Source: Bacteroides sp. | Lineage (GTDB): Bacteria; Bacteroidota; Bacteroidia; Bacteroidales; Bacteroidaceae | Assembly: GCA_015060735.1 (NCBI GenBank) | Contig: SUXX01000002.1 | Span: 62,001-126,000 of the forward strand | DNA: 64,000 nt | Direction: 5' to 3' | Shown here: one piece after another, positions 1,259-62,317 of the stretch | Position numbering within the stretch: the stretch's first letter is position 1 | How the letters are laid out: each line of letters begins with the position of its first letter | Notes under the pieces: generated by a model | Told to the model about the DNA's origin: nothing | Database searches by the model: none | Seen by the model: only the letters and a program-made list of their open reading frames with translations | Position numbers and translations under genes: made by a program

Positions 1259-1687
1259 TTAAAATAATTCCGTTGGTAGTGATTCTGCATATTCGTTGTC
1301 AATAATGCTTCTTACCTCACCTTTAATGCGTGCAATTATTCTGTTAATCAAGGTATCAGTCGTGTCGTTTTTATTAAACTTAAATCCAATATTAGCCATT
1401 CTTTTTTCACCATTAACAAACAACAATTCCAACTTTAAATTGCCTCTTTTTAAAAGACCTTTTCCCTTATACCCATTTTTAAATTTATAATGATGTAAAA
1501 TTTCAGGCTTTTGTTCCTGATTTCTCTTCCCTGCTTTTTTAACGTGTTCTTTTTGCTTGTCTTGAATTGTACAACGTTTTTTTTGTATTATACATTCAAT
1601 ATCGGAGTCTGGATGTTTTTGTTTTGCAACATCCATAAAACTGTACAAATCCAAAACATCTTCAAATTCTACTATCGTTTTTTTCAT
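1259..1687 (-). CDS. hypothetical basic protein
   Basis: 142-aa ORF, Lys-rich, no recognised domain. Confidence 0.6.
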   Translation of the reverse strand: MKKTIVEFEDVLDLYSFMDVAKQKHPDSDIECIIQKKRCTIQDKQKEHVKKAGKRNQEQKPEILHHYKFKNGYKGKGLLKRGNLKLELLFVNGEKRMANIGFKFNKNDTTDTLINRIIARIKGEVRSIIDNEYAESLPTELF

Positions 1688-1973
1688 TTTATCAAATACT
1701 TGCCTATACAGTATCAGGTTCTAATTAAAGACATATTTGACCTCTAAGTTATGAAAAATAATCAGTATAATAAATGTTCACTTTTATAATTTGTGAATAT
1801 TTTAGTCTTTCTTAGTACATAACAAATTGATATTGAATCGCTTATACATCCCCTTTAATACTTCCTTATTTTAATGCCAAAAAGAAATATTCATATTTGT
1901 TCTTCTCTGATTATAAATGAATAAATAACGTGGCTCTCTGACAATAAAAAAATCATAAAAAATCTCTGATTTT

Positions 1974-1999
1974 AAGGTGTACAGCAGTACACCTTTTTT
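1974..1999 (+). terminator. intrinsic terminator-like hairpin (aaggtgtac-AGCA-gtacacctt + T-run) ~55 bp upstream of ORF 2054
   Basis: 9-bp perfect stem, tetraloop, T6 tract. Confidence 0.7.
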
Positions 2000-2053
2000 A
2001 GTCATTTCATTTTAGGAAGAATATAATATTAAATAATTTAATCAGAGAAAATT

Positions 2054-3607
2054 ATGAATATTTTATTAAGCCGAGAAAGAATAGGAAATATTTTAGTATG
2101 TCACACTAAAAAAGGGTTTTCATCTAAACCTAAACAGAATGGATTTTACGGGAAAGTTTTAGTCGAAGAAGTTTCCTTTCCCAAATTCATTCAACTTATA
2201 AAGAACGGTCATTCTTTTAAGCAAGTTCCCGACATAGACTCCTTACAAAATAATGTAAGAGAAATAACAGAGAATGGGAAGAATCCAAGAATCAACGCAA
2301 ACAATATCAGAAAAGGAAACATTACCATGAACATTCTTCAAAGAAGATTGGTCATGCAATATTGTCAATTCCAAACCATCTTCTTTGATATTGATGAATG
2401 CAAAATTAACCACGAAGAATTAATCAAGAAACTTTCACTAAAGCCTAACCTCATATATGAGACTTTTTCATATACAGAAACAAATCGTAGATACAGACTT
2501 GTCTATATTTTGGATGCACCAATCAATACAGGTTTCTACAAATCGGTTTATTTGGCATTCAAAGAACAAATAAAAGATATTGTAGAAGATGATAAATGTG
2601 CAGAAAATCCAACACAGACTATTTTCGGAACTAACAACAATGTTTATGAGATTAATGATTTCTATTATCACATCAACACTTCCAACCTCAATTCCATTTA
2701 TTATGGGGATGTTGTTTTGAAGCAATACACGCCAAGTATAGTTGAAGAAAACTTCTACAATTATTGCATGACACATCCAATTCCCGAAATTGTAGAAAAA
2801 TATTCGACCAATAACAGAATTTACCATGAATGTATTGTTGACTGGAATTTCAACCAACACGATGTTATCAAACAAGACTTTGAATATAAGTGTATAGATG
2901 TAGAGTTTGAAACTCCCAACAATATAAACGACAAGTTTTGTATAAGCAATAAAGGTCTTTTAGCCTTACCTCATTTTGTCGGTAACAGAAAAAAACTTGT
3001 CGTCAATGACGGACGTAAAAGATATATTGAAAGGATTGCTCATTTATTGTTGTTGATGAATAAGGATCTTGTCATTGAAGACCTGATATATAATGTCCTT
3101 AAATGGTGCCAACAACATATATCATTCAATAAAAACAGGAATGAACACCTTTTAAACAACAAGATTATTGTAGAGAAATGCATATCCTGTTTCGACAATT
3201 TCAAGAACAATACAAGTAAGGATTATCTGAATTATTTGAAGATGTTAAGTGAGGAATATGTTTCGACAAAAAAGAAAGCAGTAAATCCTTACTATCAAGG
3301 ACTCCATTACAAGGACAACACTTTCTTTTATTGGAGACATTTCCAACATATTGATTTTGAAAAGTCTATTTCTTTATCTGAACTTGAAACAGAACTTTCC
3401 ACTATTAAAGTTCAAAGAAGAAAGTCTGAAAAATATAGAAGAGATAAAGGAAAAAAGAGAAATATATATAGTGGTTCTCGAAAAAATGAAATTATAGAAA
3501 TGGTTTTGAAAGGTCATTCCAACAAAGAAATTTCATTGAAATTTAATGTCAGTTCACAATATGTTTCCAAAATAAAGAATGAACTACATATCACCAAACA
3601 GAATTGA
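2054..3607 (+). CDS. primase-like (archaeo-eukaryotic primase/prim-pol type) protein with C-terminal HTH
   Basis: 'FFDIDE', 'LIYETFSYTETNRRYRLVYIL', 'DDKCAENPTQTIFG' match the pattern of plasmid/phage AEP-like primases; C-terminal 'IIEMVLKGHSNKEISLKFNVSSQYVSKIKNEL' is HTH-like; no Walker A helicase motif seen. Confidence 0.55.
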   Translation: MNILLSRERIGNILVCHTKKGFSSKPKQNGFYGKVLVEEVSFPKFIQLIKNGHSFKQVPDIDSLQNNVREITENGKNPRINANNIRKGNITMNILQRRLVMQYCQFQTIFFDIDECKINHEELIKKLSLKPNLIYETFSYTETNRRYRLVYILDAPINTGFYKSVYLAFKEQIKDIVEDDKCAENPTQTIFGTNNNVYEINDFYYHINTSNLNSIYYGDVVLKQYTPSIVEENFYNYCMTHPIPEIVEKYSTNNRIYHECIVDWNFNQHDVIKQDFEYKCIDVEFETPNNINDKFCISNKGLLALPHFVGNRKKLVVNDGRKRYIERIAHLLLLMNKDLVIEDLIYNVLKWCQQHISFNKNRNEHLLNNKIIVEKCISCFDNFKNNTSKDYLNYLKMLSEEYVSTKKKAVNPYYQGLHYKDNTFFYWRHFQHIDFEKSISLSELETELSTIKVQRRKSEKYRRDKGKKRNIYSGSRKNEIIEMVLKGHSNKEISLKFNVSSQYVSKIKNELHITKQN

Positions 3608-3710
3608 AGTAATAGTTTTAAAAATTTATAATTCAACTAACTACAACAATAATAAGCAACTTAATTCAGTTACATTTTATTGTAATAACACCTCTTTTCT
3701 TGACAATTAA

Positions 3711-3738
3711 AAAAAGGAACTTTTTAAAGTTCCTTTTT
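3711..3738. terminator. bidirectional hairpin aaaaaggaacttt/aaagttccttttt
   Basis: perfect inverted repeat between convergent ORFs. Confidence 0.65.
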
Positions 3739-4098
3739 GTTTAGAGTTAAAGTCAAATCTTGATAAAGATGTAGTTTTTTGTCTTCGTTAAAAAAGGAAT
3801 ACTTTTCGACTTTTTTAATGAATTTGAGGGCCTCGTTTTTAGTGTTTACAGAATAAAGATGTTTGTATTTTATATTGAATGGTTGATTTAATGTGATTGG
3901 ATAATTACGTCTTTTAGTGTTGAGACGAATTTTTTCGACAATAATAATGGTTAAATTATTGTTGATGTAAGTGTGAAAGACTTTATTTGGCTTTTTTTCA
4001 GGCAAGTCTTCAAGTTGTTCGCGAGTTGGGATGAATTTGTAGTAATCTACGATAAATTTTTCGTCAACATGTTGGTAAAGATTTTTCTTGTCTTCCAT
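3724..4098 (-). CDS. hypothetical protein, paralogue 1 of a tandem pair
   Basis: 124-aa ORF with clear similarity to ORF 4248..4628. Confidence 0.65.
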   Translation of the reverse strand: MEDKKNLYQHVDEKFIVDYYKFIPTREQLEDLPEKKPNKVFHTYINNNLTIIIVEKIRLNTKRRNYPITLNQPFNIKYKHLYSVNTKNEALKFIKKVEKYSFFNEDKKLHLYQDLTLTLNKKEL

Positions 4099-4158
4099 AT
4101 TTTTTTTGTATTAAAATTGAATAATTGTGAGTTTGGAAAACCAACCATGTTTTCCCTA

Positions 4159-4187
4159 ACTCTACTCCCTATATTGGGGAGTAGAGT
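4159..4187. promoter_or_regulatory. perfect 11-bp inverted repeat actctactccc-N7-gggagtagagt upstream of paralogue 1
   Basis: sequence inspection. Confidence 0.5.
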
Positions 4188-4247
4188 CTTTGATTATAAA
4201 TCTATACTTAAAGAATGTTAAATGTGGGCTTTGAAATTTAATGGTGT

Positions 4248-4628
4248 TTATTTTAGTTTTATGTTATTGATGTTGTATATGTGAAGTTGTTTTTTTGAGT
4301 CGAAAAAAGAAATTTTGTTTTCTTTTTTAAGATAAATGAGATTATTGTTTTTAGTGTTTTGTGATATGAGTCTTTGGTATTTAAATTTGAATATAGGATT
4401 AGGTGTAGTTGGTAAATGTTTTTTGTTTGGTTTGATTTTAGTAATAATGTAAATAGTAAAATTTTTAGTGAAAATATTAGGTCGTTTTTGGGATTGAAGT
4501 TTAAAGTAAAAGTCGTAGTAAGTATAAGTAAATGTTTTTAATGGAGTTAAAATTGAATAATTGATAATGAAATGGTTGGTTACTTCTTCAACTTTCTGAA
4601 TGTCAAAATACTTTTTCATATAAAACAA
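4248..4628 (-). CDS. hypothetical protein, paralogue 2, coding strand nearly G-free
   Basis: 126-aa ORF aligned by eye with ORF 3724..4098 (NTKN..KKLHLY / NTKN..KQLHIY). Confidence 0.65.
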   Translation of the reverse strand: MFYMKKYFDIQKVEEVTNHFIINYSILTPLKTFTYTYYDFYFKLQSQKRPNIFTKNFTIYIITKIKPNKKHLPTTPNPIFKFKYQRLISQNTKNNNLIYLKKENKISFFDSKKQLHIYNINNIKLK

Positions 4629-4867
4629 TTTTTAAAATTAATGATGTGAGGGATTTTCCCCCACCAAGCAAAGCGTTGTAGCAAAATGGATATGGTTTGA
4701 TTAGATTTTGTATCTTAAAGAATGTTAATTCGCGGTAGTAATGAGAAGTTTTGAGAGAATGAATCATTTTAAGCCTTTCTAAGCAAGGCTAATTCTGCCA
4801 TTGTAATTTATGGATTGAGGTGAAAATAGTTGAATAGAGAGCATAATAATATGCTTAGAAACGATAA

Positions 4868-4899
4868 AAGGTGGTACTTTTTACAGAAAGTACCACCTT
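4868..4899 (-). terminator. hairpin aaggtggtacttt-N6-aaagtaccacctt, probable terminator of the minus-strand gene ending at 5129
   Basis: 13-bp perfect stem; on the minus strand followed by TTTT. Confidence 0.65.
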
Positions 4900-5128
4900 A
4901 TTATTAGGGATGTTAAAACCTGTTTATAGGTTTGGGGTAGGGTTTAAAAATTTATAAGTGAGAGTCTAATTTTTTAAAACGCCTTGATGCGTGAGCTCGA
5001 TTTATTTATTGTTGTGTCGTGGCAGATTTTGATGATGGTAACAAATAAGGCACTATACATAATCTTGTGTAAATGTAGAATACGGGATTCAGAAATGAGT
5101 CTGGTATGGCGAATTCAACATGTTATTG

Positions 5129-12987: not shown

Positions 12988-15546
12988 TTATTTAGTTATA
13001 CCTTTCAAATGTCTGATTTTAATTTCAAGTGGTTCCGCCTTTTTGATTTGGTCGGAAGTAATGACAATTTTCTTGGTTTGTCCCGGCAACAAATCGAAGA
13101 AGTTATCCGTATATCTAGCTCCTTGTACCGGAATTTCAATGAAGATATCGCGTGCCAATTGTTTGGCCGACAATGTTATCTCGCATCGGCCATCTAACTG
13201 CTTAATCTTGGTTCGGATTTGAGTTTCCGGCAAATTCTGATCCTTCGGATAATTGAAATAATAAATTTCTTCAGAAAGTATCTGGCCTTGTGAGCTCTTC
13301 AATGTCATCAACAAGAACGTATTGCTTGGGTCAGCAGCCAATGTAGCATAATCTTCCTTACAATAGACTACAGAAGAATTCGCGGGAACTTCGCCCTTCA
13401 CCGTCTTTTGGTTTAAGACCTTTCCCTCAAAATTCATGACCTTTAACTGTAAAGTGGTATTCTTCACTGCATCCAGTTCATCAGAAAGAGTATAGATGCA
13501 AAGCTCGTTACCTTCTTTAAATGCATTCAAGAGAATAGGAGCAAATGCACGCTTCCCCTGATAATGCATAGCTTTCCAGTTGCCATAATAATCGATGCTG
13601 GACCAAGACACTACCGGCCAACTATCGTTTAACTGCCAATACAAGCTACCCATGCAATAAGGACGGTTACGACGATGAGCCTCAATGCCATGGCGAATTC
13701 CGAAGCCTTGTAAAACCAATCCTTTGTAAACCAATTCTTCGAAGTCTTCCGGCACATCATAATACAAAGCCATGGTCTTCTTTATCAATGCATTGCCGAT
13801 AGATGCCTTTTGATGGGCATTCATTACATCCGATTCTAAGGCATAGTCTTTCGGTTCGGCAAAAGTAGCAATAGTCTTCATTTCCGGGAATGCCTGAAAA
13901 CCATATTCACTCATGAAACGAGGCAGTTCTGTGTCGAAACTTTCAAAAGGCTTTTGACCATACCAAGTTCCCCAATTGTGGCTATCCGCAATCTTCCAAC
14001 TATGAGGACGTCCCCAGTTTGCTTCATACGGAGAACCGTGCATATAGAAGCGATCGGCATCATATTCTTTCACCATGGACGGAAGCAACTGATGGAATAG
14101 CTTATTATAACCTTCTTTCATCTCTTCCCAAATGGCCGGATTGGCATATTTCTTATCCCAGCCCCAATAACGCATGCCTTCATAAATTTCGTTATTACCA
14201 CACCACATAGCCAAACAAGCATGATTACGCAAACGCTTGATATTATACTTGGCTTCCTCACTAACCCGACGCAAGAAGTTAGGGTCGGAAGGATAGGTAG
14301 TACAAGCAAAAATAAAGTCTTGCCATACCAAGATACCCATTTCATCGGCAGCATCATAAAAACGGTTGTCTTCATAAATACCACCTCCCCATACACGAAT
14401 CATATTATGATTGGCATCCTTTACGTCCTTCATTAACTGATAATAACGCTCAGTTGTAACATTAGGAAGCAGAGCATCATCTGGAATAAAGTTGGCCCCT
14501 TTCGCAAACATCGGCTGACCGTTCACAACAAAATAGAATGACTTACCATCCTTATCGTCTTCCATCACAACCTTTATCGTACGAAGTCCGACACGTTTTT
14601 TCTCTGTAGCAACAACCTTATCATCTACTTTCACCGCAATTTCAAAATCGTACAAGGCGGCTTCTCCCCAACCATTTGGCATCCACAGATGAGGATTAGT
14701 TATCTCGATAGGCCAATTCAATTTATTCATACCTGGCTGCAAAGTCATGGAGGTACGTTCCGTCACCTTGTTACCTTTATATGAATAGGTCAATTCCACT
14801 TCTGCCTGTCGAGACGTTTCTGCAAGACTATTTACTTCCAAAAGATTGTTTACTTTCGCCAAGTCCTTGCTTATAGCCACCTGCTGAACGAAATAATCTT
14901 GAATACGGGCCTCATCATATAGCGTCAATGTCACCGGACGCCAAATACCACTGGTTGCCAAACGAATTCCCCAGTCCCAACCATAGCTATACGGAGCCTT
15001 TCGGCTATAAATGCTTACTCGTGTCTTGCTATGGTCATTGTCAGCCGGATATTCAAATCCATCGGTTTCCCATTGTGGAAGAGCTTGCTTAATCGGGGAA
15101 TGAAAATAAACTTGCAAACGGTTTTCTCCTTCACGCAACACATCTTGAACGGGTAATTCATAACCAACAAACATATTGTCTGTACGTTCCAATAACGAAC
15201 CATTCAGATAAATATCGGCATAAGTATCCAAACCCTCAAAGTTCAGAACCGCAGCCTGGTGGTTCAACTGTTCTTTCGACAACACAAATGTTGTCCGATA
15301 CTGCCAGTCTTCCTTTTCCACCCATTGAACTTTCTCTTCGTTCATCCCGTAAAACGGATTAATCAACTTATCATTGTCAATCAAATCCTGATGTACGGTG
15401 CCTGGAACTGTGGCCGGCATCCATTCTCCCTTTCCTACTTGCGAGAACTTCCAGCCTTGGTGCAACTTTATTGTTTCCGGAGCAGTCTGTGCTCCTAAAC
15501 AGATGGGGAAACATCCCAACATCATCAACCATTTTAATCCTTTCAT
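12988..15546 (-). CDS. GH2 family beta-mannosidase
   Basis: 'NMIRVWGGGIYEDNRFYDAADEMGILVWQDFIFACTTYP', 'WCGNNE', 'MSEYGFQAFP'. Confidence 0.95.
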   Translation of the reverse strand: MKGLKWLMMLGCFPICLGAQTAPETIKLHQGWKFSQVGKGEWMPATVPGTVHQDLIDNDKLINPFYGMNEEKVQWVEKEDWQYRTTFVLSKEQLNHQAAVLNFEGLDTYADIYLNGSLLERTDNMFVGYELPVQDVLREGENRLQVYFHSPIKQALPQWETDGFEYPADNDHSKTRVSIYSRKAPYSYGWDWGIRLATSGIWRPVTLTLYDEARIQDYFVQQVAISKDLAKVNNLLEVNSLAETSRQAEVELTYSYKGNKVTERTSMTLQPGMNKLNWPIEITNPHLWMPNGWGEAALYDFEIAVKVDDKVVATEKKRVGLRTIKVVMEDDKDGKSFYFVVNGQPMFAKGANFIPDDALLPNVTTERYYQLMKDVKDANHNMIRVWGGGIYEDNRFYDAADEMGILVWQDFIFACTTYPSDPNFLRRVSEEAKYNIKRLRNHACLAMWCGNNEIYEGMRYWGWDKKYANPAIWEEMKEGYNKLFHQLLPSMVKEYDADRFYMHGSPYEANWGRPHSWKIADSHNWGTWYGQKPFESFDTELPRFMSEYGFQAFPEMKTIATFAEPKDYALESDVMNAHQKASIGNALIKKTMALYYDVPEDFEELVYKGLVLQGFGIRHGIEAHRRNRPYCMGSLYWQLNDSWPVVSWSSIDYYGNWKAMHYQGKRAFAPILLNAFKEGNELCIYTLSDELDAVKNTTLQLKVMNFEGKVLNQKTVKGEVPANSSVVYCKEDYATLAADPSNTFLLMTLKSSQGQILSEEIYYFNYPKDQNLPETQIRTKIKQLDGRCEITLSAKQLARDIFIEIPVQGARYTDNFFDLLPGQTKKIVITSDQIKKAEPLEIKIRHLKGITK

Positions 15547-61501: not shown

Positions 61502-62317
61502 TTACAGGTGTTTCTTGATATATTCTTTCAGGATATGGAAACCGGGGGCAGCCATCGCTCCGTGGTCATATCCGTCCAATTCATACAAATATACGTTCTT
61601 ATGGCCATTCACTTTCATCATACGCCACAAATAGGCCGTTTCTTCATAACGTCCCAACAATTCCATCTCGCGGTCACCCGAAATAATAATCAAAGGAGGA
61701 GCATCCGGACGCACATAATAGAGCGGTGCAAACTCATCGATGCTTGGTTGGGAAGTCTTCATACCTTTGGCCTCGCGATAGGCAAAATGGCTGATGGCAT
61801 GTCCACTAAAAGGCACTAATGCCGCAATAGAATCGGCATCTATTCCATATTTATTCAACCATTTCTTGTCCAATCCAATCATGTTAGTCAGATAGCCTCC
61901 GGCCGAATGACCTGCTACCACGATTTTACGGGCATCCCCCCCATATTCGGCAATATGTTCGAAAGCCCAAGCTACTGCTGCAGCTGCATCATCAATACAA
62001 TCGGATAAAGTCGCCTTAGGTAACAAACGATAATTAATCGCCAACACTGCCACCTTGCTTTCTTTCAATTCGTTCGGTATGCTTTTGCTTCCTCCGGTCA
62101 ATCCACCGCCATGAAACCAGACAACCGTTACAAAATCTTTCACTCCCTCCGGATAATAAAAATCCAGTTTACAACGCTCTAACGCATATTCATTACCAGC
62201 ATTCCGATAAGGAATGTCCAACTTCTGAACATAATTCTGAGCAAAAGCCGAAGCCGTGCCACATAGAGCAAACAACAGCAAAAACATTCGGATTGCTCCC
62301 ATCCATTTTTTCATCAT
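61502..62317 (-). CDS. alpha/beta hydrolase (carboxylesterase-like), secreted
   Basis: 'VVWFHGGGLTGG', 'VVAGHSAGGYLTNMIG', 'YDHGAM'. Confidence 0.92.
   Translation of the reverse strand: MMKKWMGAIRMFLLLFALCGTASAFAQNYVQKLDIPYRNAGNEYALERCKLDFYYPEGVKDFVTVVWFHGGGLTGGSKSIPNELKESKVAVLAINYRLLPKATLSDCIDDAAAAVAWAFEHIAEYGGDARKIVVAGHSAGGYLTNMIGLDKKWLNKYGIDADSIAALVPFSGHAISHFAYREAKGMKTSQPSIDEFAPLYYVRPDAPPLIIISGDREMELLGRYEETAYLWRMMKVNGHKNVYLYELDGYDHGAMAAPGFHILKEYIKKHL

What the first reader, a model, noticed from the sequence alone, without database searches (positions are those of the whole stretch)
4248..4560. Extreme strand asymmetry: a coding gene nearly free of G on its sense strand
In 4261-4560 (plus strand) I count about 5 C and 63 G in 300 nt, so the minus-strand mRNA has almost no G. 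The encoded 126-aa protein contains no Ala and no Gly, and is dominated by K, N, I, T, F, Y and P. The neighbouring paralogue (3724..4098) shows a milder version (no Gly, one Ala). AT-richness alone does not explain C depletion on one strand only. Possible causes are directional C-to-T mutation of the plus strand, selection for an unstructured G-less mRNA, or avoidance of a G-dependent nuclease or modification.
Basis: seen in the sequence. Interest (0 to 1): 0.65.

Follow-up and report, generated by a model that had tools for sequence, protein, structure and literature searches.

The report
Nearly G-free orphan gene, mobile element
A small gene of unknown function at the end of a 12.5-kb mobile element in a gut Bacteroidales genome uses as little of the letter G as its protein allows; the oddity is real and unique in that genome, but its cause and function are unproven, so it is a compositional curiosity and not a known or demonstrated new system.

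Summary
4261-4560 holds 5 C and 63 G. The C-poor tract runs 4203-4582 (7 C, 80 G). It is the strongest skew in 124 kb of the contig, and it contains the only C-free run of 102 nt or more in the 2.45-Mb MAG. The tract covers codons 13-123 of a real minus-strand gene (ATG at 4619, 123 aa, "ORF2") and the start of its 3' UTR. ORF2 is a tandem paralogue (35% identity) of 3724-4098 ("ORF1"). Both lie just inside the right end of a ~12.5-kb serine-recombinase element with inverted-repeat ends. A second copy, from an independent assembly, carries the same tract, so it is not an artefact. Two layers add up. The protein almost lacks residues with G-starting codons (Val, Ala, Asp, Glu, Gly 4%, against 19% in ORF1). 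In addition every synonymous choice avoids G: 6 G, the minimum possible, where ~18-21 are expected. Sense C is not lowered. ORF1 shows the same bias, weaker. The bias follows the sense strand of the genes, which argues for a transcript-level pressure on loosely constrained orphan genes over regional DNA-strand mutation. Mutation versus selection is unresolved. No other homologue was found. Interest is modest.

The parts
4248..4619 (-). ORF2, 123-aa orphan gene (ATG at 4619, TAA stop ending at 4248); nearly G-free on its sense strand from codon 13 on
   Evidence: other sense frames hold 5 and 10 stops, open by chance in 3e-4 of dinucleotide shuffles
4203..4582 (.). C-poor tract on the + strand (7 C, 80 G): codons 13-123 of ORF2 plus ~45 nt of 3' UTR
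3724..4098 (-). ORF1, 124-aa tandem paralogue of ORF2 (35% identity over the alignment) with a milder form of the same bias (G z -3.2, C z +5.0)
2054..3607 (+). 517-aa gene of the element, convergent with ORF1; possible replication/primase-like protein with a C-terminal helix-turn-helix (inference; only sub-threshold HTH hits)
4189..4221 (-). upstream element of ORF1: TTAACATTCTTTAAG-N12-ATCAAA
   Evidence: only two matches in the window, 0 expected
4696..4728 (-). same upstream element before ORF2 (duplicated with the gene; promoter or regulator site inferred)
4160..4188 (-). hairpin in the leader of ORF1 (ACTCTACTCCC/GGGGAGTAGAGT)
   Evidence: Read from sequence
3710..3738 (.). bidirectional terminator-like hairpin at the end of ORF1 (AAAAAGGAACTTT/AAAGTTCCTTTTT)
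   Evidence: Read from sequence
4950..4980 (-). right inverted-repeat end of the element (core GACTCTCACTTATAAA at 4951-4966); left end at contig C44:54513-54528, upstream of the window
   Evidence: the second copy L027 stops matching at 4980

Best explanation
ORF2 is a genuine, tandemly duplicated orphan accessory gene carried at the right end of a ~12.5-kb serine-recombinase integrative element. Its near absence of G is the extreme end of a bias shared by its paralogue and, faintly, by the convergent 517-aa gene: less G and no less (or more) C on the sense strand of each gene, whichever DNA strand that is. The most likely cause is a long-standing pressure on the transcribed sense strand of this gene cassette (inferred), which favours a C-over-G, unstructured mRNA and acts on a loosely constrained small protein that tolerates loss of Val, Ala, Asp, Glu and Gly. 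Shown here: real coding frame, duplication, synonymous G at its floor, sense-strand specificity, conservation in a second copy, near-zero predicted RNA structure. Inferred: that the pressure is on RNA, and whether it is selection or a mutational bias. The protein's function is not known.
For: Codons 13-123 have 6 G = the minimum possible (expected 18-21). A3:G3 is 39:0 while C3:T3 is unchanged. ORF1 G z -3.2 / C z +5.0; ORF2 13+ G z -4.7 / C z +3.0; the 517-aa gene G z -1.7 / C z +3.0; the other eleven genes of the element have G within +-1.7. The 517-aa gene is on the + strand and ORF1/ORF2 on the - strand, so the bias follows the sense strand. Paralogue comparison: G-to-A 22 against A-to-G 4, but C/T 18 against 17, and codon-position identities of 52/66/41% typical of coding genes. 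The sense RNA is almost unfolded. The second copy L027 has 0 differences in ORF1 and 1 (Y to F) in ORF2, against 11 synonymous and 7 nonsynonymous in the 517-aa gene.
Against: The bias in the 517-aa gene is weak and rests on one gene, so sense-strand specificity rests mainly on two paralogues that share a strand. Intergenic DNA right of ORF2 (4620-4980) also has G over C on the + strand (75:36), as a DNA-strand process would predict. The first 12 codons of ORF2 escape, which a whole-mRNA pressure does not explain. The lack of synonymous differences between copies could reflect recent exchange. Only two copies of one lineage are known.
Confidence: 0.42

Rival explanations
1. DNA-strand asymmetry of the element: replication (or transfer) of a plasmid-like form starts near the convergent junction 3605-3723, making the + strand to its right an extreme leading strand (rich in G and T).
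For: The cumulative keto (GT minus AC) skew of the element has its minimum at 3720. A ~55-nt sequence at this junction recurs at two other places in the element (L003:14311 and 14549). Non-coding 4620-4980 is also G-rich on +.
Against: Convergent genes with A- and C-rich sense strands give the same minimum without an origin. The depletion has sharp edges at codon 13 and ~45 nt past the stop, unlike a replication gradient, and ORF1, closer to the junction, is much milder. The local GC-skew minimum lies elsewhere (2825).
Confidence: 0.2
2. Ordinary drift: a small, lysine/asparagine/isoleucine-rich orphan protein in AT-rich DNA with A-ending codons; the G deficit is a by-product.
For: Much of the deficit is at first codon positions through amino-acid replacement (Val+Ala+Asp+Glu+Gly 4%). 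The element is ~30% GC. The tract was picked because it is extreme.
Against: Given the protein, G is still 4-5 standard deviations below expectation. AT drift should lower C as well, and it did not. Only one such tract exists in 2.45 Mb.
Confidence: 0.18
3. Hypermutation: a single-strand-specific cytosine deamination event or process on the + strand converted most C to T in a ~380-nt patch of ORF2, and the surviving frame was fixed.
For: One-directional G-to-A excess against ORF1 (22:4). Sharp edges that do not coincide with the start codon. Four of the five C left in 4261-4560 sit in GTC.
Against: Sense C is not just kept but high. Synonymous G is at exactly zero, more complete than a patch of deamination normally gives (general knowledge). 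ORF1 and the 517-aa gene share the trend. The two copies show no ongoing C-to-T in the tract. No deaminase domain was recognised by Pfam in the element proteins tested.
Confidence: 0.12
4. The tract is a Rho-utilisation region: a C-over-G, unstructured mRNA segment that ends transcription when ORF2 is not translated and so controls ORF1 downstream.
For: Rho-binding regions are cytosine-rich, guanine-poor and unstructured (PMC9927376). The 78-nt windows starting at 4430 and 4289 on the - strand have C minus G of +20 and +18, among the top three on that strand.
Against: C is only 21%. The spaced-YC pattern used by rut predictors is not met in the tract. Several places on the + strand of the window score higher. 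What Rho of this host prefers is not known.
Confidence: 0.08

Closest known systems
Strand composition skew of bacterial genes (GC skew, replication- or transcription-associated)
   Same: Unequal G and C between strands at synonymous and nonsynonymous sites
   Different: Far stronger (7 C against 80 G), confined to ~380 nt, sense C over G, the reverse of the G-over-C coding bias seen in most other genes of this element
Rho-utilisation (rut) regions
   Same: C over G, almost no RNA structure
   Different: Inside a coding frame, C only 21%, spaced YC dimers absent by the scan used
Cargo orphan genes of Bacteroidales integrative elements (large serine recombinase / resolvase type)
   Same: Low-GC island with a large serine recombinase (Resolvase, Recombinase and Zn-ribbon domains), a tyrosine recombinase, small orphan genes and inverted-repeat ends
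   Different: The ORF1/ORF2 family has no match in Pfam, PHROGs, NCBIfam, PADLOC or PDB sequences, and no homologue beyond a second copy of the same element

Membership tests
Protein-coding gene (versus chance open frame) | Frame longer than chance, codon-position pattern, paralogue conserved in the same frame | tested here: met
   Open in 3e-4 of shuffles; other sense frames 5 and 10 stops; position identities 52/66/41% with ORF1
Rho-utilisation region | C over G and unstructured RNA over about 80 nt | tested here: met
   C minus G +20 per 78 nt; -0.017 kcal/mol per nt
Rho-utilisation region | Regularly spaced YC dimers | tested here: not met
   No pattern match in 3600-4800 on the - strand
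Rho-utilisation region | Rho-dependent loss of downstream transcript | not testable with these tools
   Needs RNA from the organism
Deaminase hypermutation tract | One-directional C-to-T on one strand relative to an ancestor | tested here: inconclusive
   22:4 excess against ORF1, but polarity unknown and sense C raised
Replication-strand skew | Sign depends on DNA strand, not on gene orientation | tested here: inconclusive
   Sign reverses at the convergent junction between the 517-aa gene and ORF1, but intergenic 4620-4980 keeps the + strand sign
Serine-recombinase integrative element | Large serine recombinase with Resolvase, Recombinase and Zn-ribbon domains, and defined ends | tested here: met
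   PF00239, PF07508, PF13408; inverted 16-nt core at both ends, only two copies in the genome
Known protein family for ORF1/ORF2 | Profile match | tested here: not met
   No match in Pfam, PHROGs, PADLOC, NCBIfam, PDB sequences

The most novel reading that the evidence does not exclude
ORF2 is kept G-free by selection as an RNA-level device (for instance to be translated or to persist while G-targeting nucleases, G modification or low GTP stop other mRNAs), so that its protein alphabet has been reduced to what 26 G-free sense codons allow.
Probability: 0.07. Interest if true: 0.7.

Novelty: new variant of a known kind. Interest (0 to 1): 0.3.

Why it matters
If the G floor is maintained by selection, it is a natural G-less coding sequence and a clean test case for RNA-level selection on codon and amino-acid use. 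If it is mutational, it is a sharply bounded footprint of strand-specific change in bacterial DNA. As it stands it is a well-documented compositional outlier in an unstudied gene pair, without a demonstrated function.

Tried and rejected
Chance or artefact: rejected (unique in the MAG; second copy from an independent assembly). Random open frame: rejected. Homologue searches: viral contigs with ORF1, the 517-aa gene and the two-row profile, plasmids and phages by tblastn, and samples of 199 relatives, 399 and 301 family genomes and 393 and 384 order genomes: none beyond the element itself, apart from a weak 103-residue match of the 517-aa gene in one genome. The weak family-level hits of ORF1 (E 0.002-0.01) were judged chance; the one inspected (L011) lies in a gene cluster unrelated to this element. 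The inverted-repeat core in two IMG/VR contigs was a chance match inside phage genes. Structure prediction with two rows gave pLDDT 37 and no usable fold; a fold search was therefore not run. Rfam: nothing above a gathering score. Literature searches for G-depleted coding sequences, rut composition and strand asymmetry gave background only.

Full report
OBSERVATION. The tract extends to 4203-4582 (7 C, 80 G). It is the largest GC skew in the window at every window size tested, the only 300-nt stretch with 20 or fewer of C or G in 124 kb of the contig, and its 110-nt C-free run (4373-4482) is the only one of 102 nt or more in the 2.45-Mb genome, both strands. In 17 of 23 same-genus genomes no such run exists. 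Of the examples inspected in the same genus, three are tandem repeats (L031-L033), one is a glycine-rich collagen-like repeat (L035) and two have no open frame (L036, L037).

THE GENE. ORF2 (4248-4619, minus strand, 123 aa from the ATG) is coding: its frame is open although shuffles of the same dinucleotide content give on average 6.7 stops (open in 1 of 3000), and the other sense frames hold 5 and 10 stops. It is a tandem paralogue of ORF1 (3724-4098; 35% identity). The upstream element TTAACATTCTTTAAG-N12-ATCAAA was duplicated with it (4189-4221 and 4696-4728). Codon-position identities of 52, 66 and 41% fit two diverged coding genes.

TWO LAYERS OF G DEPLETION. (a) Protein: Val, Ala, Asp, Glu and Gly make up 4% of residues 13-123, against 19% in ORF1 and 22% in the adjacent 517-aa gene. 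(b) Synonymous: given that protein, 6 G is the minimum possible, and 6 are present; 18.3+-2.9 are expected with the codon usage of the 517-aa gene and 21.2+-3.2 with that of the whole element. A3:G3 is 39:0 against 154:50 (p = 6e-5), whereas C3:T3 is unchanged (27:41 against 102:185, p = 0.58). General AT drift is therefore excluded as a full explanation. Between ORF1 and ORF2, G-to-A outnumbers A-to-G 22 to 4, while C and T interchange evenly (18:17); the direction in time cannot be fixed without an outgroup.

WHICH STRAND. Relative to the pooled codon usage of the element, ORF1 has G z -3.2 and C z +5.0, ORF2 (codon 13 on) -4.7 and +3.0, and the 517-aa gene -1.7 and +3.0; eleven other genes have G within +-1.7. 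The 517-aa gene is on the other DNA strand. The bias thus tends to follow the sense strand of this three-gene cassette and not one DNA strand, which argues against regional C-to-T change of the + strand. The counter-evidence is that non-coding 4620-4980 also has more G than C on + (75:36), and that the cumulative keto skew of the element has its minimum at 3720, where an origin would put it. The two cannot be separated with one element.

RNA. The sense RNA of ORF2 is almost unfolded (-0.017 kcal/mol per nt against -0.18+-0.04 in the element and -0.24+-0.04 in the chromosome). It resembles a Rho-binding region in being C over G and unstructured (definition in PMC9927376), but C is only 21% and the spaced-YC test fails.

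SETTING. ORF2 lies just inside the right end of a ~12.5-kb, ~30% GC element (contig C44 ~54,500-66,980; the window starts at 62,001). The element has a large serine recombinase and a tyrosine recombinase, and inverted ends with the core GACTCTCACTTATAAA, present exactly twice in the genome and in none of 148 other genomes. A second copy (L027, JAUNXN010000103.1, a contig labelled Methanobrevibacter but evidently mis-binned) matches 1768-4980 at 98.5% and then carries different cargo. It has the same G-free tract: ORF1 has no difference and ORF2 one (nonsynonymous), while the 517-aa gene has 11 synonymous and 7 nonsynonymous. Zero of 139 synonymous sites against 11 of 291 hints at constraint, or at recent exchange. 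No further homologue was found.

VERDICT. A real, unique and well-bounded compositional outlier in an orphan gene pair. The favoured reading is a long-standing sense-strand (transcript-level) pressure on a weakly constrained accessory gene, with confidence 0.42; replication-strand skew, drift, hypermutation and a Rho site remain open. Function of the protein: not determined; no profile, structure or neighbour assigns one.

Noticed in passing
L003:16245-17126 (contig C44:58245-59126, left of the window): The element encodes a uracil-DNA-glycosylase superfamily protein (PF03167, E 8e-7); worth noting next to a C-poor tract, but no link was shown.
   Followed up: partly
L027:3226-3678: The second copy of the element carries, in place of the window's cargo, a protein with an SRA domain (PF18491, E 6e-23), a fold that can read modified cytosine.
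   Followed up: partly
window 3630-3690 and L003:14311-14365, 14549-14603: A ~55-nt sequence (AAAATGTAACTGAATTAA..TGCTTATTATTGTTGTA) occurs three times in the element's intergenic regions: candidate origin, regulator or recombinase sites.
   Followed up: partly
L027 (JAUNXN010000103.1): Contig deposited in a Methanobrevibacter MAG is a copy of this Bacteroidales element: probable mis-binning.
   Followed up: yes
L037:1450-1640; also G015:C154:90-206 and L036: C-free, non-tandem, apparently non-coding stretches rich in AAGGTATTAG-like words in three same-genus genomes; in L037 it follows a Bacteroides-type promoter (TACCTTTGCA) on the minus strand, suggesting a C-free 5' leader.
   Followed up: no
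window 1259-1687 (-), L027:3896-4312 and 4341-4793 (+): A family of 138-150-aa orphan proteins shared between the two copies of the element (about 51% identity in the aligned part), apparently exchanged cargo.
   Followed up: no
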